From assembly GCA_022820665.1 (NCBI GenBank), contig JAJEFB010000048.1:185203-249202 (forward strand): a stretch of 64,000 nucleotides of DNA, written 5' to 3'. This DNA is from Anaerolineae bacterium. Lineage in GTDB: Bacteria; Chloroflexota; Anaerolineae; Aggregatilineales; Phototrophicaceae. Each line of letters opens with the position of its first letter. The first letter of the stretch is position 1. The notes under the pieces were generated by a model that saw only the letters and a program-made list of their open reading frames with translations, did not search any database and was not told where the DNA came from. The translations under genes and the position numbers were made by a program. This document shows positions 45,240 to 57,837 of this stretch, piece after piece.

Positions 45240-46271
45240 CTACTCCGTAATCGTCACCTTCGACAAGCCGCGCGGCTTGTCTACTTCATATCCGCGCGCA
45301 AGCGCCTGGCGCATAGCGAAAACCTGGCCCGGCATCACAGCGATAATGGGGCTGAGCCACTCCGGCGCAGAAGGTACACGCATGGCGCCTGTCGCTTCTC
45401 CCAGCATGTCCTCATCGTCGCTGATGAGGAGTGTTTCCGCGCCTTTTTCCTTTACCCTGTTCGAGATGTCCCGCATTGTAGCGAAGGCTCTGCCCTGCGG
45501 CGCGACCAGAATCACAGGATAGCCCGCCTGCACGACGGCGATGGGACCGTGGCGGAAGTCGGCTTCGCTGTAGCCTTCGCTGGCGATGTAGGTCAATTCC
45601 TTGACCTTGAGGCTGATCTCGCAGGCGGTGGCGTAATTGAAGCCGCGCCCCAGCACACTGAGCCGATCCATAGCGCGATAACGCCCCGCCCAGTCCGCGA
45701 TGCCTTCGCTGAGGTCAAGCGTTTCCCGCGCCAACTGTGGCAAGTTCATGAGATCGGATCGCATCTCCTCATCGTCGGCCAGCGCGCTTGCCAACATCGC
45801 AATCACGGTCAGCTGAGCCGTATAGGTCTTGGTCGCGGCCACGCTGAACTCTTCTTCAGCGAGCAGAGGCAGGTGATACGCTGCGCTCTGCGCCAGCGCT
45901 GAATCATCGTAGTTGGTAATCGCCAGCGTCAGCCCGCCCTGAACCCGCGCGTCGTTCAAGACCGCGCGCACATCTTCCGCCTTGCCCGATTGCGAAATAC
46001 CGATCACCAGCGCTTTCGAGAAGTCGGGCGAGCGGCCATAAACCGTATGCAGCGACGGCGTCGCCAGCATGACCGGCATTCGCAGGACCGCGCCCAACAA
46101 ATACTGGGCGTAAATGGCGGCATGATCCGATGTGCCGCGCGCGGCGATGCAGACAAATACCGGGTTGAACTCGCGAATTGCGGCGGCGACTAATTCCGTC
46201 GCCGCCTCGCTCTCGTCGAGCAAGCGGCTTATAACGTCGGGCTGTTGGGCGATCTCGTTCTTGAGGAGCAT
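45240..46271 (-). CDS. SIS-domain sugar isomerase (GlmS/AgaS-like), copy 1
   Basis: CIAARGTSDHAAIYAQYLLG, IGISQSGKAEDVRAVL, SEGYSEADFRHGPIAVV. Confidence 0.92.
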   Translation of the reverse strand: MLLKNEIAQQPDVISRLLDESEAATELVAAAIREFNPVFVCIAARGTSDHAAIYAQYLLGAVLRMPVMLATPSLHTVYGRSPDFSKALVIGISQSGKAEDVRAVLNDARVQGGLTLAITNYDDSALAQSAAYHLPLLAEEEFSVAATKTYTAQLTVIAMLASALADDEEMRSDLMNLPQLARETLDLSEGIADWAGRYRAMDRLSVLGRGFNYATACEISLKVKELTYIASEGYSEADFRHGPIAVVQAGYPVILVAPQGRAFATMRDISNRVKEKGAETLLISDDEDMLGEATGAMRVPSAPEWLSPIIAVMPGQVFAMRQALARGYEVDKPRGLSKVTITE

Positions 46272-46393
46272 GGCAGGTCTCTCATTTGATATACCGCTGA
46301 ACGCGGTAGCCGAGCGGGTTTACTATTTTCTGTGTGCGCGACATTCCCGGGTTCCTATCGCCGAATACGCGCCGAGCGGCTATCTTTCCGCAG

Positions 46394-47944
46394 CTAATCG
46401 TCCAGCGGCCGATAGTTGACACCGAGCGTATCCAGGCAGGGCAAATGTCCCTTCAAGCGCGTCAGGAAAGCGCCATAGTCGCGCCGCTGCGGATGGTTCC
46501 ACAGCACCTCCGCCAGCGCGATGGCGCGCGGAAACGCCATATACTCCAGATGATCCGATGTGGGAATGTATTCTGTCCAGAGATTGCCCTGCCCGCCCAG
46601 GATGTGCTCTTTCTTGTCATCGGCAATTTCGTCGGGCACGACCACAAACTGATAGACCTTGCGCAGAGGCAAGTAGCGTGGCAGGGCGGGCGGTTCGCTA
46701 GCGAAGTCTTCGGCTTGATAATAGTCGAGATAGCAATAGGTGGTCGGCGTCATGACGACGTCATGGCCCGCGTTAGCGGCTTCAATGCCGCCGTCGCTGC
46801 CGCGCCAACTCATCACCGTCGCATTTGGCGCCAATCCGCCTTCCAGGATTTCGTCCCAGCCGATCAAGCGGCGTCCGCGGTCGCCAAGCCAGCTATCAAA
46901 CTGGCGGACGAACCAGCTTTGCAGCTCATCTTCGTTTTTCAAGCCTTCAACCTTGATGCGCGCCTGGCAAGCCGGGCAACGTTTCCAGCGTTTTTTGGGC
47001 GCTTCGTCTCCGCCGACGTGGATGAACTCGCTGGGGAAAAGCTCAAGGACCTCGCCGAAGACGTCTTTCAGAAATGTGAATACGTCATCGTTTCCTGCGC
47101 AATAGATGTCGTCGTCAATGCCCCAACTGGTACGAACTTGATAATCCTTCCCGCGGCAGCCCAATTCAGGATAAGCAGTCAGAGCCGCGAGGCTGTGACC
47201 GGGCAATTCGATCTCCGGAACGACCGTGACGCCCCGTTCGGCCGCATAGGCGACCACCTCGCGGATCTGCTTCTGCGTATAATAGCCGCCATAGGGTTTT
47301 CCGTCGAATTTCCTGCGGTTGGTGGGCAGGCAAGTTTCCTCCCGGAACGCGCCGATTTCGGTCAGCCGGGGATATTTTTTGATCTCGATCCGCCAGCCCT
47401 GGTCTTCCGTCAGGTGCCAGTGGAAGGTGTTGAACTTGTAGAAAGCCAGCAGGTCGATGAACTTTTTGATGAATGCGGGCGGAAACATGTGACGCCCGAC
47501 ATCCAGATGCAAGCCCCGCCAGCCAAAAGCCGGCGCATCGCTGATTCTTAGCGCCGGGATGCGCCAATCGATGCCGTCGGCTCGTTCCTCACCCAGGATT
47601 TGCGGGGGCAGCAATTGGCGCAGGGTCTGGAATCCATGCAAAAAGCCCGTCGGCGAAGAGGCTGATAGGACGATCTTATCGCTCGACGCCGTCAAGCGGT
47701 ACGCCTCGGGCGAATCCAGGTCCTGCTCCTCAACCAGGTTAATGACATTGCGGCTATTGACCGTGTCGCCAGTCGGCTCGACCGGGAGCGGGAAACCAGT
47801 TGCGGGTCGCAGATAGTTCGCCAGCATTTCGCCCAGTCTCTCGTCCTGCGCGCGTATCGCCGTGTCAGCATTGAGGATGAAACTGCCTTCATTTCTCTCG
47901 ATTGATTGCGGGCGGGGGAACAAGCTGATTTCGGACATGATCAA
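46394..47944 (-). CDS. glycoside hydrolase family 20 beta-N-acetylhexosaminidase
   Basis: GWRGLHLDVGRHMFPPAFIKKFIDLLAFYKFNTFHWHLTEDQGWRIEIKKYP, HVGGDEAPKKRW, WDEILEGG. Confidence 0.95.
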   Translation of the reverse strand: MIMSEISLFPRPQSIERNEGSFILNADTAIRAQDERLGEMLANYLRPATGFPLPVEPTGDTVNSRNVINLVEEQDLDSPEAYRLTASSDKIVLSASSPTGFLHGFQTLRQLLPPQILGEERADGIDWRIPALRISDAPAFGWRGLHLDVGRHMFPPAFIKKFIDLLAFYKFNTFHWHLTEDQGWRIEIKKYPRLTEIGAFREETCLPTNRRKFDGKPYGGYYTQKQIREVVAYAAERGVTVVPEIELPGHSLAALTAYPELGCRGKDYQVRTSWGIDDDIYCAGNDDVFTFLKDVFGEVLELFPSEFIHVGGDEAPKKRWKRCPACQARIKVEGLKNEDELQSWFVRQFDSWLGDRGRRLIGWDEILEGGLAPNATVMSWRGSDGGIEAANAGHDVVMTPTTYCYLDYYQAEDFASEPPALPRYLPLRKVYQFVVVPDEIADDKKEHILGGQGNLWTEYIPTSDHLEYMAFPRAIALAEVLWNHPQRRDYGAFLTRLKGHLPCLDTLGVNYRPLDD

Positions 47945-47976
47945 GATCCTTTTCGATTTCGCTTTTCATTCGCTCA

Positions 47977-49017
47977 TCATAGATCCTCGAGCGAGATGAC
48001 GGCGCTCAGGTTATGCGGCCGATCGGGATTCTGTCCATTGTGCAGGGCGCGATGATAAGCCAGGAGTTGCAAGACCGGCAGATACAGGACAGGCGCATTC
48101 CAGATCGGCAGGTCAGTTGGCAGAGCGATATGACGCGGCGAGTCAGTCGCGAGCGATCCGATGCTCAGCGTCGCCGCGCCCATGCGGCGCATTTCCCGCA
48201 GCACTCGCAATTCTTGCCGGGCGGATTCCGCCGATATCAAGCCGACAACCAGCGCGTTTTCAGCCGCCATCGACATCGGACCGTGGCGGAATTCCAGCGT
48301 GTGAAATGCTTCGCTGTAGGACAAGGACATCTCCTTCATCTTCAGCATGGCTTCACAAGCGATGCCATAAAGCATATCGGCGCCGAGAAAGAAAAAGCGT
48401 TCGATGCCCTGGTCGGTGCCCAGCGTTCCCGCCAAATCGCCAAAGGCATCTAACAACTGTCGACATTGCGCCGGCAATCGGGCGCTGGAAGCCCGCTCAT
48501 GTCCAGCCAGCGCAGCAGCCATCTGTTGCAACAGCACGCACATGCTGCTGAAGGAACGTGTCTGCGCGACGCTCTTTTCGCTGGCGCTGTCGATCGCGAA
48601 AGCCAGATCGGCCTCGAGCGCCAGCGGGCTGCCGCTATCGCAGGTGACCGTGATGACCGGACCGCCGATTCGGGATCTGAAAGCGGTCCCCGCGCGCAGG
48701 GTTTCCGTAGTCGCGCCGGAGCGCGATACCGTAATCAGCGCATATTTGCGCTCTTTGAGGAAGATCGACTCCGGAAAAAGCAGCAATTCCGATGCCGGGT
48801 GCGCCTGCGCGTCGATGCCGGCTCTGCGCAGCAAGCGCGCTGCGGTCAGCGAGAGATAGTACGTGGAGCCGCAGCCGGTGACGACAACGCGATCTGGAGC
48901 AGCTTCCGAAAGCAGGTGCCGGAAATCCGATTCTTTCTCGGCGAAAGCGTCAAGCGCGTCAGCCCACACCCGCGGCTGGCTGATGATCTCCTGGCGTGTA
49001 TGTTGTCCTGACTTCAT
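47977..49017 (-). CDS. SIS-domain sugar isomerase (GlmS-like), copy 2
   Basis: VVTGCGSTYYLSLTAARLLRR, ITVSRSGATTETLRA, SYSEAFHTLEFRHGPMSM. Start codon overlaps the helicase stop (ATGA). Confidence 0.92.
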   Translation of the reverse strand: MKSGQHTRQEIISQPRVWADALDAFAEKESDFRHLLSEAAPDRVVVTGCGSTYYLSLTAARLLRRAGIDAQAHPASELLLFPESIFLKERKYALITVSRSGATTETLRAGTAFRSRIGGPVITVTCDSGSPLALEADLAFAIDSASEKSVAQTRSFSSMCVLLQQMAAALAGHERASSARLPAQCRQLLDAFGDLAGTLGTDQGIERFFFLGADMLYGIACEAMLKMKEMSLSYSEAFHTLEFRHGPMSMAAENALVVGLISAESARQELRVLREMRRMGAATLSIGSLATDSPRHIALPTDLPIWNAPVLYLPVLQLLAYHRALHNGQNPDRPHNLSAVISLEDL

Positions 49018-51209
49018 AGACTCTTTATGCTTTCGATTGCGCCGGGGATATCTGTGCAGTCCAGAGCATAAGCCTCGTGCAGCAGATCCTTCGGCACATA
49101 GTCAGAGTACCTGTCGCATTGGCAAGGCATTGGCGCAGGCAGTTCGGCAGCGGATGGCGGCTCGGCGCAGATCGCTTCCAGTTTGGATTTTACCGCGGGG
49201 GCATTTGTCGCGTCACATTCGAGTTCGTAAAAATATGGCAGGCAAATGTTATTGCATTTGAGTCCGGCGTGTTCTAACAAGCGCAACTGGGTTCTAGCTT
49301 GTCGTGTCCCACAGAAAGGCAAGATGAGGAAAGAATTTGGCGCAAGCGGCAGGATGGATGTTTCGGCGAGTTCGGCGCTTTTGGCTGTATCGCGGGCGCG
49401 TTGCAGACGTTCTATGGCACCGGGCTTAAGATAAGGATAGCTGTCTTGAGAAAGGAGGATTTGGCGGATTTTTTGGGATACGCCGGTATGTATTGGTGGT
49501 CCGTCCCCTCTCCAAAGTGTCGCAGGTCTGCCTTTTATCCGTTTCACCTCAATGATGCGGGCTTCCTCATCTACTTTGAGCACCTGCCAGGCATATCCCG
49601 CAAGGAGGATCGAACTGTCGACTTCCGGCTCCCCTTGAATCGTGCCGATCTCGCGTGATTTTTCGCGCACGCGATACTCCACTTCGTCACAGAAGACAGC
49701 ATAGAAACGATAATGATTGACAATTTTCTCAGCCTCCACGCCAATGATCAAGCCGCCTCGCTCCGTTTGTTCTAGATGTTCAATCTTCAGCAAGTAGCGC
49801 AGGATTCTACGAAAGTGATCTTGAGTAATATGCTGGAAGGCCGACAAGGTGAGGACGCGCGCGGCGATTTGTGGTGGCGAAAGTTCGCTGTGAGATTTGA
49901 TGATACTCATTGTCTGGTGATAGAGCAGGCTCAAGGGCATTTGCGGGATTTCAGGCGGCTCAATCCACTTCTCTTCGGCATAGAGTTGGATGATGGCGAT
50001 GGTTTGCAGCAGATTCCAGGGCAACTCTTCACCGATGTGACGCTCTTCCTCTTCTTCTTCTGTCGAGTAAAAGAACATACGAGAAGGTCCGCCGCGCCGC
50101 CCGGAGCGCCCTAGCCGCTGCACAAAACTGGAGACCGAACGCGTCGAATTGACCTGTATCACCTGGTCCAACTGTCCCAGATCAATGCCCAGTTCCAACG
50201 TTACGGTAGCGGCTGTGCAGGCATATTGATTCTCGTCTTTCATGGCGGCTTCAGCGGCTTCGCGATAAGGCGCGGAGATGCTGCCGTGGTGCACATGATA
50301 GAAGTTGGGATCTTTGCGCCGCGCGGCAATACGCCTCATATTCATAATGATGGTTTCGGTGGCCGCTCTGCTGTTGGCGAAGATCAGGGTTTTGGGAACG
50401 CGCCTCGTCATCTTGTACAGATGCTCGTTGTAGGCGGCTTCTTTAGCGCGAGCCTTTCTCGCCGCCTCTGGGGAATGCGCTTCTTTATCCAGACCGTCCT
50501 GACGATTTGGCAGCGGAAAATACTCCAGCCCGATTTCCACCGACGAAGTCTTTTGACTGGTGATCAATTGCACCGGTATTTCGGTATCTCCGCATAGCCA
50601 ATCCATTGCCAGTTGCGGTTCTCCGATGGTCGCTGAAAGCCCGATTCGGCGCGAAGATTCAGCTTGCAGGCGCGACAAGCGCTCCAACTGGCACATCACT
50701 TGCCGTCCTCGATCCGAATCAATGAATGCGTGAACTTCGTCGATGATGATGTAACGAGTATCGTGGAAGAGTCGCTTTAACTCATGGTGTCGGTTAATCA
50801 ACATGGCTTCCAGCGATTCTGGCGTGATTTGAAGGATGCCCCGCGCCCGTTGCAGAAAGCGCTGTTTCTTTGATTGCGCGACATCGCCATGCCAACTTTG
50901 AACCGGGATATCGGTTTCTTCCAGGAGCTCGGCGACGCGCTCGAACTGGTCGTTGATGAGCGCTTTCAAAGGCCCGATATACATGGCTCCAATCGTCGAT
51001 GGCGGATTGCGGTGCAAGTCAGTGATAATGGGCAGCAGCGCGGCTTCGGTCTTGCCGCTGGCGGTGCCGCTGGAAATCAGAATGTGATCCGACGTATCGA
51101 GAACGGCGCGAATGGCTTCAACTTGAATGTCGCGCAGAGTCTCCCATTTATTGCGGTAGATGTATTCCTGGATGAAGGGCGCGAGTTTGTAAAACGGATT
51201 GCCGGTCAT
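49014..51209 (-). CDS. DEAD/DEAH-box superfamily 2 helicase, Lhr/BrxHI-like
   Basis: ETLRDIQVEAIRAVLDTSDHILISSGTASGKTEAALLP, YIGPLKALINDQFER, IIIDEVHAF, GLSATIGEP, QRLGRSGRRGGPSR. Confidence 0.9.
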   Translation of the reverse strand: MTGNPFYKLAPFIQEYIYRNKWETLRDIQVEAIRAVLDTSDHILISSGTASGKTEAALLPIITDLHRNPPSTIGAMYIGPLKALINDQFERVAELLEETDIPVQSWHGDVAQSKKQRFLQRARGILQITPESLEAMLINRHHELKRLFHDTRYIIIDEVHAFIDSDRGRQVMCQLERLSRLQAESSRRIGLSATIGEPQLAMDWLCGDTEIPVQLITSQKTSSVEIGLEYFPLPNRQDGLDKEAHSPEAARKARAKEAAYNEHLYKMTRRVPKTLIFANSRAATETIIMNMRRIAARRKDPNFYHVHHGSISAPYREAAEAAMKDENQYACTAATVTLELGIDLGQLDQVIQVNSTRSVSSFVQRLGRSGRRGGPSRMFFYSTEEEEEERHIGEELPWNLLQTIAIIQLYAEEKWIEPPEIPQMPLSLLYHQTMSIIKSHSELSPPQIAARVLTLSAFQHITQDHFRRILRYLLKIEHLEQTERGGLIIGVEAEKIVNHYRFYAVFCDEVEYRVREKSREIGTIQGEPEVDSSILLAGYAWQVLKVDEEARIIEVKRIKGRPATLWRGDGPPIHTGVSQKIRQILLSQDSYPYLKPGAIERLQRARDTAKSAELAETSILPLAPNSFLILPFCGTRQARTQLRLLEHAGLKCNNICLPYFYELECDATNAPAVKSKLEAICAEPPSAAELPAPMPCQCDRYSDYVPKDLLHEAYALDCTDIPGAIESIKSL

Positions 51210-52561
51210 TAGATTTGGAAGCTGGCGTAGGGGGAGGTGGGTTCATCATGGATTTGGTTGGCATTGGTCAAAGCATCAAGGTCGGAATAAGGCTTGCCGG
51301 TGGTGAACTCGACACCGCCCATGATGGATTCAAAGCTCTCATTGGGATTTTGATGCAGGAGGTTCAATACCGTCACGAAATCCCGGACTATATCGCGCGG
51401 AGTGAGTAGGGTATCAGCGCCGATTCGATTCATAATCTCCGACATAAATGACGTGAGTTGTTCGTGATTGAGGTTAGATTCGTATTTGTAATGAAAAGCG
51501 TGGATCTGGCAGATCTTTTGCAATAGTGAGTAGATTTCATCTTGGTGGAGAATATCAAGGTGAATGAGAGGTGAATTCAAATCGCGGAATCCTTCACGTA
51601 CAAACTGGCTTTCTTCGAGCCGTGTTTTCAAGGCATCATAGCTGAACAAGCCGCGGCGGGTATCCTGCACCATATCGGGCGTAGCACCGAACATCACCCC
51701 CAAATATTCCACGCCGCCTTGTCGTGTGTCGTTGAAGACTGTCAGCAGGCGCTCGTAGTTGTTTCTGCGGGAAACAGCATGAGATATACGATAGAGATTT
51801 ACCGCCTCATCAATAAAGATAATCAGCCCACTGTAGCCAATCTCGTGGACAAAATAAGCCATCAACTTGATATAGTCATACCATGATTGATCGTCAATAA
51901 CGCTACGCACGCCCAATGCCTGTCGCGCTTCAGTTTTGGTATTGAATTCGCCGCGCAGCCAGCGCATGGCCGCCGCTTTTCGGTCTTCATCGCCGATCTG
52001 ATGTCCGTGCCAATACTCATGTATTACCGTGGCGAAGTCAAAGCCATGAACCATACCTTCCATCGCGTCAACGACATCGTAGATCCCGGTTTCCACTGCG
52101 TCGGCGAAGCGCCGAGAATTACGATCAATGCCAGCGCGCACGAATTTGGATTGTACCTTGCTGATCCATTTCTCCAAAATCGTCGCAAAGGCATTACCAT
52201 CCGGACGTGTTTTGATCGCCATGTTCTTCATCAGTTCGCGATAGGTGGCCAATCCTTCGTCCTTGGAACCAGTCAAGCGTCTTTGGGGGCTCAGGTCGGC
52301 ATCGGCGACGACAAAATTGCGCTGAAAAGCATAATTGCGCATTAGCTGCAGCATAAAGCTCTTGCCAGAGCCATAACGTCCGACAACCAGTCGGCAGGTG
52401 GCGCCGCCATCGGCGATAACCTCATCCATATCGTGCAATAGCGCATCAATCTCTGCCTTGCGCCCTACGACAATATGCTCAGCGCCTTTGCGAGGCACGA
52501 CCCCGGCGCTCAAGGAATTCAAAATAGCGGTGGACATGCGTTTGGTCAGTTTATTTGCCAT
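51209..52561 (-). CDS. ATP-binding protein, BrxD/DUF2791-like P-loop ATPase
   Basis: Two-start ORF; ATG 52561 after TTGAGG. HIVVGRKAEIDALLHDMDEVIADGGATCRLVVGRYGSGKSFMLQLMRNYAFQRNFVVADADLSP; LIIFIDEAVNLYRI. Confidence 0.85.
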   Translation of the reverse strand: MANKLTKRMSTAILNSLSAGVVPRKGAEHIVVGRKAEIDALLHDMDEVIADGGATCRLVVGRYGSGKSFMLQLMRNYAFQRNFVVADADLSPQRRLTGSKDEGLATYRELMKNMAIKTRPDGNAFATILEKWISKVQSKFVRAGIDRNSRRFADAVETGIYDVVDAMEGMVHGFDFATVIHEYWHGHQIGDEDRKAAAMRWLRGEFNTKTEARQALGVRSVIDDQSWYDYIKLMAYFVHEIGYSGLIIFIDEAVNLYRISHAVSRRNNYERLLTVFNDTRQGGVEYLGVMFGATPDMVQDTRRGLFSYDALKTRLEESQFVREGFRDLNSPLIHLDILHQDEIYSLLQKICQIHAFHYKYESNLNHEQLTSFMSEIMNRIGADTLLTPRDIVRDFVTVLNLLHQNPNESFESIMGGVEFTTGKPYSDLDALTNANQIHDEPTSPYASFQI

Positions 52562-52640
52562 CGCAAACCTCAATTATCCTCATTCTGCTTGCCGGATATT
52601 ACTCAAAACTTCGCGATTTTCGCAAGTTTTCAAGTGAAAT

Positions 52641-54944
52641 TTAACGCGCAGCATTCTTTGACTCAAGATATTCTTTGTGCGTGATGATGTATTCAATTTC
52701 GTCGCGATAATCCTCGTGGATGACCCACTGGCCATCTTCATCGAAAATGACATTTTCGTCGATATTGTCATGGGCGCGTTCATTAATTTCTTCAAAAATA
52801 AGATTGACAAACTGCCCCTTAAAAGCCGACTCCAGAACGGACGGCGGGCATTGCCAATCGTGTTTCATCATCTGCGCCAGCAATTGCGCTGTTTCACTAT
52901 CGTTTGTCCCCATAATATGCGCCACCACCTCAAGATCGGTAAGCAAATCCGCCGGTGTATTGTCCGGACGTTGCAAAAATCCCGGCGCGGCAGTTGTATT
53001 TTCAGCGCCATTATTTCTTGCGCGGATCGTTTCCTCCTTTGCATTCTCATCTCGCTCTGTCTCGCCTATTTCGCTAGCAGGGCCGACAAGCAATGAGCGA
53101 AGCGTCACGGGCTCGTCCGCTTCCGCCTCACGCTGTGGGATGCGTGCGCCGCCGGAGTCGTCTTCCGAGTTTCCAATATCGATCGGCGCAAACATCTCCG
53201 CCTCAACAATGGCACTCTCTTCCGCCTTTTCCGTAATGGCTTCTGCGAGCTGTGTGTCGCCCGGTTCTTCACTTGGCTTGACCTCAAGTTCGGCAATGTT
53301 GTCCTTTTGCGCGTGGATTGTGGCACTCAACACAGCAGTTCGCTCTTGTTCGTCTCGCAGGTCGGATACCAACTCGGCAATACGATCCCGTTTGTCCGAA
53401 AGCTCGTTTTCAAGTGCGGCGTTGCGTTTCTGTTGCTCTTGAATCTCGTTTCCAATTTCGTCTTTATGCGCTTTAATCTGGCGCTCGTACTTAGTGATGG
53501 CGGACTGCTTGCCCCGCAGCTTGGCCTTAAGTGTGGCATTCACCTCTCTTTGCGCGCCAAGACTGCTCTCCAACTCAGTGATTTGGATTCCTTGCAATTG
53601 AATCTTGCTTTCAAGCTCTACGATAGCACTCTTTTCCACTTTTTCCTTGACGGATTCCACGGGTTTCGTATCTTTCGGATCTTCAGTTAGTTTAGCTTCA
53701 AGTTTGTCAATTTCGTCTTTATGAGCTCTAATCCGACGCTCGTACTTGGTGATGTCTGACTGCTTACCTCGTAGCTGGGCCTTTAGTGTGACATTCTCCT
53801 CTTTTTGTGCGGCAAGACTGCTCTCAAATTCCGCGATTTGGATTCCTTGCGATTGAACCTTGCTTTCAAGCTCGCTGACATGCTGCTTCAGAGAAAGAAT
53901 ATAGGCTGCGTCAGAGACGGCGGCACCCTGGGCGTCGTCTTGCGCAATTAAAGGGACAGCCAACAGTTGATCGGGCTTGCTTGAAAGACGAGCGTTCAAG
54001 TCTTTGAGACAAGCGAGTGGCTCAACTTGCTCCAAATTGAGACTGAGAAAATGCTCTCGCCGGACATTAAGAGCAATAAGGCGAAAGCGACCCGGATTTC
54101 CGGTGCTTGGGTTTATCGCGTCGACATATCCATCAAAGACAATATGTTCGATTTTTTCTGTTCGATCAGCCGTAAAAATCTCATAAATAGTACGCAGGCA
54201 GGTTTTCGCCAGCACTGACGAGTAAAATTGCCTGCGCTGTTTTTGCGGCAGGACAGTCTCGGTGATCTCGTCACGGGACTTCGCATACTTGTACGCCTTT
54301 ATTTCCGAAATGATATGCATTGCGGGCATTTCATAAGATATTTTCAGCAGTCGAGATTCGGGAAAATAAGCGAGTTTCGCATTTTTGGAGAAACCCGCCG
54401 GATACTCGCTAGTTGTCAGCACTAGATTGAAGTATCTGATGACTGCCTGCGCCTCTCCCGCAGCAAAGTTCTCTTGAAACTGCTCAATTTCTTCATTGTG
54501 TTTTTCTGCCTCCGCACGGATTTGACTGACTTGTTTCTTATGATTGAACAAAGTTTCCCGATAGATCTCACAGTCTTGCTTATACTTACTTTCCGCGCTT
54601 GTACAGGCTTTATCGTATGCTCGTTTCTTCCAAGGCAGCCAAGACCCAAGACCCGAGAGCGGCGCTGGCAAATATCGTTGCAGAATCGGTTCTTTTCGCT
54701 TGAAAGAGGGGAGTCGAGCTTGGACTTTTAAACTATCAAAGTCGACAAAAGTATCAACTGAAAGGGCGGTTTTCAGCAGATTTTCTAATTGAGTTCTTGA
54801 TTGATCCAAGATTGCGTTTTTGCTGTCGACCTCAGAAAACCGAGCGGTCAAATGATCGCGCAATTGCTGTTCTGCCAACAGTATTTTTTCCAGGGTTCGC
54901 TCCAAATCGGCCTTCTGTTTGTTCGAGCGTGAGATTAAGGACAT
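52641..54944 (-). CDS. large coiled-coil protein with restriction-system-type N-terminal domain and TerB-C-like C-terminus
   Basis: ATG at 54944 after GAGGTC (ORF opens with TTG 54992). VDFDSLKVQARLP..., IRYFNLVLTTSEYPAGF...SEIKAYKYAKSRDEI...LRTIYEIFTADRTEKIEHIVFDGYVDAINPSTG; two 85-aa coiled-coil repeats; C-term LIFEEINERAHDNIDENVIFDEDGQWVI. Confidence 0.75.
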   Translation of the reverse strand: MSLISRSNKQKADLERTLEKILLAEQQLRDHLTARFSEVDSKNAILDQSRTQLENLLKTALSVDTFVDFDSLKVQARLPSFKRKEPILQRYLPAPLSGLGSWLPWKKRAYDKACTSAESKYKQDCEIYRETLFNHKKQVSQIRAEAEKHNEEIEQFQENFAAGEAQAVIRYFNLVLTTSEYPAGFSKNAKLAYFPESRLLKISYEMPAMHIISEIKAYKYAKSRDEITETVLPQKQRRQFYSSVLAKTCLRTIYEIFTADRTEKIEHIVFDGYVDAINPSTGNPGRFRLIALNVRREHFLSLNLEQVEPLACLKDLNARLSSKPDQLLAVPLIAQDDAQGAAVSDAAYILSLKQHVSELESKVQSQGIQIAEFESSLAAQKEENVTLKAQLRGKQSDITKYERRIRAHKDEIDKLEAKLTEDPKDTKPVESVKEKVEKSAIVELESKIQLQGIQITELESSLGAQREVNATLKAKLRGKQSAITKYERQIKAHKDEIGNEIQEQQKRNAALENELSDKRDRIAELVSDLRDEQERTAVLSATIHAQKDNIAELEVKPSEEPGDTQLAEAITEKAEESAIVEAEMFAPIDIGNSEDDSGGARIPQREAEADEPVTLRSLLVGPASEIGETERDENAKEETIRARNNGAENTTAAPGFLQRPDNTPADLLTDLEVVAHIMGTNDSETAQLLAQMMKHDWQCPPSVLESAFKGQFVNLIFEEINERAHDNIDENVIFDEDGQWVIHEDYRDEIEYIITHKEYLESKNAAR

Positions 54945-56310: not shown

Positions 56311-57672
56311 TTACCGTGATCTCGCTACAGCTCGGCGCACTCGCTTGGCATCCAACAAGAATTCGGCGATCTCTCCATCAATCACCAGCGCGTTGGCGAG
56401 TCTGTTTCTAATGACCATTTCTGTTGCAATCTTTTTATGATCTCCGGTAGCGATGACCCAAACGTAACCGTTGTTTCTGTCCATCACGTTGCGTAATAGG
56501 TTGAGAGCCGGGGCATAGACCTTGCGCTCTTGAATCGATTGGAACGAGGCATCACCGACGCCTTGGGAGTTGTCGCCTAGCATATGTCCCAAGACCTCGC
56601 CACTGAAGGTTCTTTCCTTGTTCTCCAGTTTCAATTGTTCGTGCAGGTTATGAAGAAACTTGGGACTCAGCGTACTTCTCCTGGAATACGCTAAAGAATC
56701 CTCAGCGTTAGGGGAAGAAACGCCGCCCACCGTCATCAGGATCGCGCGCGCCACTCGCAATTCTTCTATGGTCGCCGCCGCTTGGGCTTGATGCGCATCC
56801 GGGTCCTCCCAGTGCAGACTCCTCCGCTCGGGAGCCAAATAGGGCAAGGTAAACGCCCGCGTGTTTGGATTGCGAGCGGCCAATAATTTGACCGCCAGAT
56901 TGGACGATACAGAAGCCGCCTCTTGCTGGTGGCTGCTGACTTCCATGGTGGATGCCCAGTTAATGCTCTTGTATTGATGCTGGCTGGGCGGAGCCAATTC
57001 CGCGCAACGATAGAGCGTATATCCAGGTCCGATCCCGATCGCGCCCTCTTCCAGCGCGGGAAAGACTTCAGTAGCGGCGGCATGCGCGAGGAACTCGACG
57101 TTGAACAGGTGCGAGGATACGCAATTCCTATGGCTGTGACGTCCTTTAGGAAGCTCGACGACAAGGACTTGCTTGAGCAGCGGCGAATAAAGCTTAAGCA
57201 AGTCATCCTCCAGTAGATGATTTCGACCGACCCGCGTCAGCGTTAGCGCGTTTGCAAAAATCGCTGTGCGAAACGAACGTTCGAGCCCAGCTATGGTCTG
57301 CCCCTTGAATCGACCATTTGGACCCGTCAATTCGGATTCAAACAGACCATCCTGGACGACTGCCTCGAAGAACTGGATGCCTACTCTATACTCCTTGCTC
57401 AATTCTTCAGTCAAGTTCTCCGGTATATTCTCCATCCAGCCAAATGCGCCATTTTTATAATGCTCAATGCATCCATGCTCGTCGATGCCAAGCAAGTAGT
57501 CGCTGCTAACATCCAGGAAAGTGCAGATCTCGATCAATCTGGAGATTGAAGGCATTGTGCCACTCATCCAATTGGCGACCCCGCCTTCAGAAACCCGCAG
57601 CCGATGCGCGAGTTCTCTTTGGGTGATTTTTCTCTTCTTCAATACTTGCTTAAGTCTTTGTGGAAAGGTCAT
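56311..57672 (-). CDS. transcriptional regulator: XRE-type HTH fused to a SorC-like sugar-binding sensor domain
   Basis: MTFPQRLKQVLKKRKITQRELAHRLRVSEGGVANWMSGTMPSISRLIEICTFLDVSSDYLLG; later GAIGIGPGYTLYRCAELAPP and SVSSNLAVKLLAARNPNTRAFTLPYLAP sensor-like segments. Confidence 0.75.
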   Translation of the reverse strand: MTFPQRLKQVLKKRKITQRELAHRLRVSEGGVANWMSGTMPSISRLIEICTFLDVSSDYLLGIDEHGCIEHYKNGAFGWMENIPENLTEELSKEYRVGIQFFEAVVQDGLFESELTGPNGRFKGQTIAGLERSFRTAIFANALTLTRVGRNHLLEDDLLKLYSPLLKQVLVVELPKGRHSHRNCVSSHLFNVEFLAHAAATEVFPALEEGAIGIGPGYTLYRCAELAPPSQHQYKSINWASTMEVSSHQQEAASVSSNLAVKLLAARNPNTRAFTLPYLAPERRSLHWEDPDAHQAQAAATIEELRVARAILMTVGGVSSPNAEDSLAYSRRSTLSPKFLHNLHEQLKLENKERTFSGEVLGHMLGDNSQGVGDASFQSIQERKVYAPALNLLRNVMDRNNGYVWVIATGDHKKIATEMVIRNRLANALVIDGEIAEFLLDAKRVRRAVARSR

Positions 57673-57837
57673 GCAACCGCACCAGCAGCAGTTATAGAAT
57701 CTTCGGCGCATTCAAGAAGGTTTCAATTTGACATCGGCAAGCATTCCCATTCGCTTCAGAAGACACCGTTGCATCGGTTGCTGGAAAGTCTGCCGCGTAA
57801 TACTTCAGTGATTATGAATGCCCATTGTCGATGTTCA

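What the first reader, a model, noticed from the sequence alone, without database searches (positions are those of the whole stretch)
49014..54944. Compact three-gene helicase/BrxD-like ATPase/TerB-C coiled-coil module: candidate stand-alone genome-defence system
Seen: three consecutive minus-strand genes. They encode (i) a 767-aa protein with an N-terminal domain like that in some restriction-system proteins (VDFDSLK..., IRYFNLVLTTSEYP..., KAYKYAKSRDEI, LRTIYEIFTAD, IVFDGYVDAINPSTG), a long coiled coil and a C-terminus resembling TerB-C; (ii) a P-loop ATPase with the GRKAEIDALL/GRYGSGKSFMLQLMR signature of the BrxD/DUF2791 family; (iii) a 731-aa SF2 helicase with SGTASGKTEAALLP/DEVHAF/QRLGRSGRRGG, Lhr/BrxHI-like. 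The ATPase stop and helicase start overlap (TAATG). Established: BrxD and BrxHI are components of type 2 BREX. Here there is no PglX methylase, PglZ, PglW or PglY in the window. Inference: a minimal BREX-derived or BREX-related machine in which the coiled-coil/TerB-C protein replaces the large ATPase and effector parts. I recall such trios from other genomes but know of no assigned mechanism.
Basis: partly seen in the sequence, partly recalled or inferred. Interest (0 to 1): 0.85.

Follow-up and report, generated by a model that had tools for sequence, protein, structure and literature searches.

The report
Shango anti-phage system, remodelled SngA
The three genes are Shango, an already described bacterial anti-virus system, not a stripped-down BREX; the new part is that one of its three proteins has replaced its usual front half with a domain otherwise found on DNA-cutting restriction enzymes.

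Summary
The three genes exist at the stated coordinates, in the stated order. They are not an unassigned BREX relative: they are the known anti-phage system Shango (sngA-sngB-sngC). The ATPase matches SngB at E 2e-180 (BrxD 1e-47) and the helicase SngC at 8e-236 (BrxHI 5e-130). No PglZ over cut-off was found in this genome or 15 same-genus genomes. Shango has proven anti-phage activity in Pseudomonas, but I found no published mechanism.

What is new is SngA. SngA elsewhere carries TerB_N and TerB_C. In this Chloroflexota genus it exists in three architectures: (i) restriction-enzyme-type N-domain + TerB_N + TerB_C; (ii) N-domain + coiled coil + TerB_C, the window's type; (iii) short, TerB_C only. 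The N-domain is the one that precedes an Mrr nuclease in type IV-like restriction enzymes. Between the window and its sister species at the same site, the N-domain, SngC and flanking genes are orthologous, while the C-terminal half of SngA is saturated with change and TerB_N is present in only one; SngB is intermediate. This suggests SngA is Shango's exchangeable recognition subunit and TerB_C its docking part (inferred). Verdict: new variant of a known kind.

The parts
52641..54944 (-). sngA variant (767 aa): restriction-enzyme-type N-domain + long coiled coil + TerB_C; no TerB_N
   Evidence: PADLOC mREase_IV 3.3e-35 over the N-domain, SngA 0.0024 at the C-terminus; C-terminus 50% identical over 118 aa to the L011 SngA, where Pfam TerB_C is found
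53910..54944 (-). SngA N-domain (residues 1-345 of 767), shared with Mrr-nuclease proteins; long helices plus an alpha/beta globule
   Evidence: alignments A1/A2; AlphaFold mean pLDDT 87.4; no PDB match with E <= 0.001
53193..53894 (-). SngA coiled coil (boundaries approximate)
   Evidence: coiled-coil-type matches only, SMC-like and below cut-off; variable in length between relatives
52644..52949 (-). SngA TerB_C region (approximate; by homology, no direct Pfam call)
51209..52573 (-). sngB: AAA+ ATPase of the BrxC/BrxD (DUF2791) superfamily (start may be M5, 52561)
   Evidence: SngB PDLC03959 2e-180, BrxD 1.3e-47; Pfam BrxC_BrxD 3.3e-158; Walker A and Walker B residues invariant over 28 homologues
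49014..51209 (-). sngC: SF2 DEAD/DEAH helicase
   Evidence: SngC PDLC03960 7.7e-236, BrxHI 5e-130; Pfam DEAD and Helicase_C
47977..49017 (-). SIS-domain sugar-phosphate enzyme, first gene after sngC, overlapping it by 4 nt (context, not part of Shango)
46394..47944 (-). GH20 beta-N-acetylhexosaminidase (context)
45240..46271 (-). second SIS-domain enzyme (context)

Best explanation
The module is a Shango anti-phage system whose SngA subunit has been remodelled. Shown: SngB and SngC are ordinary, conserved Shango components, and SngA keeps the TerB_C end but has, in place of the usual TerB_N, the domain that in type IV-like restriction enzymes sits in front of an Mrr nuclease, joined by a coiled coil. 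Shown: no nuclease domain is recognised in any of the three proteins. Inferred: SngA is the recognition and scaffold subunit. Its front half senses phage DNA or an infection-specific structure, and its TerB_C end docks on the SngB AAA+ ATPase, which acts as an ATP-driven switch or loader (initiator/TnsC/BrxC-like) placing the SngC helicase on invading DNA; SngC then disrupts replication or processing of that DNA, alone or with host nucleases. In this genus the parts of SngA are exchanged by recombination, as the specificity parts of restriction systems are. Probabilities: Shango identity 0.97; SngA as exchangeable recognition subunit 0.55; the loader-helicase scheme as described 0.4.
For: Identity: PADLOC SngB 2e-180, SngC 8e-236. 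Fixed gene order in 10 of 10 genus loci; of 21 same-strand genes upstream of SngB outside the genus, 15 are SngA by profile, 15 with TerB_C and 13 with TerB_N by Pfam. Modularity: three SngA architectures in one genus. N-domain origin: Mrr_cat 6e-35 and 1.5e-31 behind the same N-domain in two same-order genomes, and Mrr behind it in 14 of 14 provirus contigs and in most Chloroflexota hits. Exchange in place: window versus G020, third-position identity about 0.6-0.85 over the SngA N-domain and SngC but about 0.25 over SngA residues 400-630, with SngB at 0.4-0.68; dS 0.54 (N-domain), 0.51 (SngC), 0.35-0.43 (flanks), 1.31 (SngB). dN/dS well below 1 in SngB, SngC and the N-domain, so the genes are under selection. 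SngB model: ORC/Cdc6/TnsC/BrxC-class AAA+ matches. SngC belongs to a helicase clade formed by SngC, BrxHI, DruE and DpdJ (PMC12278908). Anti-phage activity of Pseudomonas Shango (PMC10250203).
Against: No phage assay exists for this variant. SngA matches its own profile only weakly (E 0.0024), so loss of TerB_N could have changed or abolished function. No structural match identifies what the N-domain binds. SngB Foldseek hits have low TM-scores (about 0.3-0.5), so the loader comparison is at fold-class level only. The locus is not in a recognisable defence island: neighbours are sugar-catabolism genes. In the one sister pair compared in detail it is the C-terminal half of SngA that was exchanged, not the N-domain.
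Confidence: 0.6

Rival explanations
1. A minimal BREX-derived system: BrxD and BrxHI kept, other BREX genes replaced by the TerB-C protein.
For: SngB is in the Pfam BrxC_BrxD family and SngC groups with BrxHI (PMC12278908), so the ATPase and helicase do share ancestry with BREX parts.
Against: SngB/SngC profile E-values beat BrxD/BrxHI by 133 and 106 orders of magnitude; NCBIfam BrxD cut-off not reached; no PglZ over cut-off in own genome and 15 same-genus genomes; SngA-B-C is a known stand-alone unit.
Confidence: 0.03
2. A decaying Shango: loss of TerB_N in the window's SngA has inactivated the system, which survives by hitchhiking in a sugar operon.
For: TerB_N is absent in four genus loci that keep the N-domain and in both short forms; SngA is the least conserved of the three.
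Against: All three frames are intact, Walker and helicase motifs are present, dN/dS is low; the type without TerB_N occurs in four species (G000, G006, G010, G018), and the short type is conserved in G003 and G007 (SngC 89%, SngB 95%).
Confidence: 0.15
3. A co-opted, non-defence genome-maintenance complex tied to amino-sugar metabolism: Shango genes in a stable operon with SIS-GH20-SIS act in DNA repair or growth control.
For: In five species the Shango genes sit directly in front of the same SIS-GH20-SIS operon with an identical 4-nt overlap, with SngC divergence like that of the flanks.
Against: Patchy presence (9 of 25 same-genus genomes); in G002, G024, G044, G003 and G007 no such sugar genes flank Shango in the stretches read; SngA changes fast, which is typical of conflict systems.
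Confidence: 0.12

Closest known systems
Shango (SngA-SngB-SngC), Millman et al. 2022; Johnson et al. 2023 (PMC10250203)
   Same: Same three genes in the same order; SngB and SngC match at E 2e-180 and 8e-236; TerB_C end of SngA kept.
   Different: SngA lacks TerB_N and carries a restriction-enzyme-type N-domain and a long coiled coil; located in a sugar-catabolism operon, not a defence island.
Type IV-like Mrr restriction enzymes (PADLOC mREase_IV, PDLC03663)
   Same: The N-domain of SngA is homologous to their N-terminal part (3.3e-35).
   Different: The Mrr nuclease domain is absent; coiled coil and TerB_C follow instead.
BREX (BrxD, BrxHI)
   Same: ATPase and helicase superfamilies.
   Different: No PglZ; profile E-values favour SngB and SngC by more than 100 orders of magnitude.
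SNIPE-like DUF4041 + GIY-YIG nucleases (PMC13190303)
   Same: In two other Chloroflexota genomes a stand-alone copy of the N-domain is encoded next to such a nuclease.
   Different: No DUF4041 or GIY-YIG in the three window proteins; the link is by gene neighbourhood only.

Membership tests
Shango | SngB-family AAA+ ATPase | tested here: met
   PDLC03959 2e-180 over residues 7-426
Shango | SngC-family SF2 helicase | tested here: met
   PDLC03960 7.7e-236 over residues 4-728
Shango | three adjacent genes sngA-sngB-sngC, same strand | tested here: met
   window and 9 further genus loci
Shango | TerB-like SngA matching the SngA profile | tested here: inconclusive
   window SngA E 0.0024, no TerB_N; TerB_C by homology to L011; the syntenic copy in sister G020 matches SngA at 9.9e-67 with TerB_N and TerB_C
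Shango | anti-phage activity | not testable with these tools
   shown for other Shango systems, e.g. P. aeruginosa PA14 (PMC10250203)
BREX | PglZ phosphatase present | tested here: not met
   no match over cut-off in own genome, 15 same-genus and 9 same-order genomes
BREX | BrxD equivalog score | tested here: not met
   NF033438 159.7 bits against a cut-off of 350
Mrr type IV restriction enzyme | mREase_IV N-domain | tested here: met
   3.3e-35
Mrr type IV restriction enzyme | Mrr_cat nuclease domain | tested here: not met
   no nuclease family in SngA by Pfam; the mREase_IV match stops before the Mrr part

The most novel reading that the evidence does not exclude
SngA is a plug-in recognition subunit of Shango: its front half is exchanged between TerB_N, a restriction-enzyme targeting domain and short forms while TerB_C, SngB and SngC remain. 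Shango would then be a general loader-helicase machine that can be re-aimed by domain exchange, and the transplanted domain would help reveal what Mrr-type enzymes of this family recognise. A further, more daring step is that coupling to the GlcNAc operon makes the defence responsive to cell-wall debris from lysed neighbours.
Probability: 0.35. Interest if true: 0.65.

Novelty: new variant of a known kind. Interest (0 to 1): 0.42.

Why it matters
I found no published mechanism for Shango. A natural series within one genus, in which SngA loses TerB_N, gains a restriction-type domain or shrinks to TerB_C while SngB and SngC stay constant, says which part is dispensable and which is the core, and gives ready-made constructs to test where target recognition lies. 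It also shows that profile-based annotation can miss the third gene of such loci (SngA E 0.0024).

Tried and rejected
BREX reading: rejected. SngA as a nuclease: no nuclease domain found by Pfam; its match to the mREase_IV profile covers only the part before the nuclease, and the conserved columns of the N-domain look mostly structural. Structure of the N-domain: good model, but no PDB or viral structure match with E <= 0.001; a TBP sequence hit at E 0.18 is treated as noise. Phage-borne copies of SngB: none in 50,697 phage records. Viral contigs encoding SngA itself: none. A prophage- or tRNA-linked island in the window: no tRNA, and no defence hits among ten other window genes tried, apart from a weak HTH-only match. 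The 2012 work on Ter-dependent stress response systems was not found as full text, only papers citing it. N-domain homologues outside Chloroflexota were sampled only through the plasmid and viral collections, where they are annotated as restriction endonucleases or carry Mrr.

Full report
What is there. Three minus-strand genes lie at 52641-54944, 51209-52573 and 49014-51209. The window is part of a 4.56 Mb, 53-contig genome. One same-genus genome has a Shango contig of the same length (32,829 bases), with the same hit identities, as JAPOOU010000276.1, a Chloroflexota assembly, so the genus is taken to be Chloroflexota.

Identification. PADLOC calls the ATPase SngB (2e-180; BrxD 1.3e-47) and the helicase SngC (7.7e-236; BrxHI 5e-130). 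The NCBIfam BrxD model is far below its cut-off, and PglZ is not found over cut-off in this genome or 15 same-genus genomes. This is the Shango system, which gave 10-100-fold reduction in plating of many phages when a P. aeruginosa version was expressed (PMC10250203). A 2026 review still lists its mechanism as unknown (PMC12926258).

Distribution. SngB occurs in 9 of 25 genomes of the genus and in none of 16 other genomes of the order. A tenth same-genus genome, G044, came up through the N-domain search. All ten loci have sngA-sngB-sngC. SngB relatives are found in 41 genome contigs, nearly all of other lineages, and 692 plasmids, in no phage record.

The third protein. Outside the genus, 15 of 21 same-strand genes upstream of SngB match the SngA profile; 15 match TerB_C and 13 match TerB_N. 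Inside the genus there are three forms. Form (i), G002, G024, G044, G020: restriction-type N-domain + TerB_N + TerB_C. Form (ii), the window, G006, G018, G010: N-domain + coiled coil + TerB_C without TerB_N. Form (iii), G003, G007: short protein with coiled coil, a small winged-helix-like segment and TerB_C. TerB_C of the window protein rests on homology (50% over 118 residues to L011), since Pfam does not call it directly.

Origin of the N-domain. The same domain precedes an Mrr_cat nuclease in proteins from two other genera of the order, in 14 of 14 provirus contigs and in most hits among 400 Chloroflexota genomes. In none of these, apart from the window itself, is it joined to TerB_C. In two Chloroflexota genomes it stands alone beside a gene with DUF4041 and a GIY-YIG nuclease, the architecture of the SNIPE nuclease (PMC13190303). 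So the domain travels with nucleases, and only in this genus was it found joined to Shango. AlphaFold gives a confident model: long helices packed with an alpha/beta globule (mean pLDDT 87.4). No solved structure matches with E <= 0.001.

Evolution in place. In five species (G000, G006, G010, G018, G020) Shango sits directly before a SIS-GH20-SIS operon, and the sngC stop overlaps the SIS start by the same 4 nt. In the window-G020 pair, SngC and the SngA N-domain have dS 0.51 and 0.54, near the flanking genes (0.35-0.43), but SngB has 1.31, and whole SngA 1.21. Third-position identity falls from about 0.7 in the N-domain to about 0.25 in the middle of SngA, then is about 0.4-0.68 in SngB and about 0.63-0.87 in SngC. 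The TerB_C end of the window protein is closer to G002, G024 and G044 (46-48%) than to its sister (37%). The simplest reading is that the locus is inherited vertically while the SngA C-terminal half, probably with SngB, is exchanged by recombination. Very fast divergence cannot be excluded for the coiled coil, but does not explain the presence or absence of TerB_N.

Mechanism. Shown: an AAA+ ATPase with invariant Walker residues and a fold of the ORC/Cdc6/TnsC/BrxC class (weak matches), an SF2 helicase of the defence-associated SngC-BrxHI-DruE-DpdJ clade (PMC12278908), and an adaptor with no recognised enzyme domain. Inferred: SngA recognises the target, SngB loads or licenses, SngC acts on DNA. 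The change of SngA architecture with constant partners is the main argument for SngA as the recognition part.

Novelty. The system is already known; this SngA architecture was not found described in the library searched. New variant of a known kind.

Noticed in passing
L137 1171-4072 (+) and L141 1-2751 (-), two same-phylum genomes: A stand-alone copy of the SngA-type N-domain is directly followed (overlapping in L141) by a gene with DUF4041 + GIY-YIG, the SNIPE nuclease architecture; possibly a two-gene defence unit.
   Followed up: partly
L023 10305-14871 and L024 10317-14752: Shango loci with two tandem SngC-like helicases (a Eubacteriales assembly and Candidatus Hodarchaeum mangrovi, an archaeon).
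   Followed up: no
window 45240-51209; L013, L014, L015, L018: Shango forms a stable unit with a SIS-GH20-SIS amino-sugar operon in five species; in G006, G010 and G018 a nagA-like gene lies divergently upstream of sngA, and in G001, G004, G005 and G012 (no SngB hit) the nagA-like gene sits directly beside the SIS operon, but it is not next to sngA in the window.
   Followed up: partly
L104 8337-9277 (-): A broken copy of the N-domain gene in same-genus genome G021, spread over two reading frames, with no SngB hit in that genome.
   Followed up: no
plasmid collection: SngB relatives on 692 plasmids, mainly Klebsiella (449) and Salmonella (144), 542 of them predicted conjugative.
   Followed up: no
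window 56311-57711 (-): HTH (Cro/C1-type) protein with a weak SorC-like sugar-binding match, possibly the regulator of the neighbouring sugar genes; the weak RmrA match is through the HTH only.
   Followed up: no
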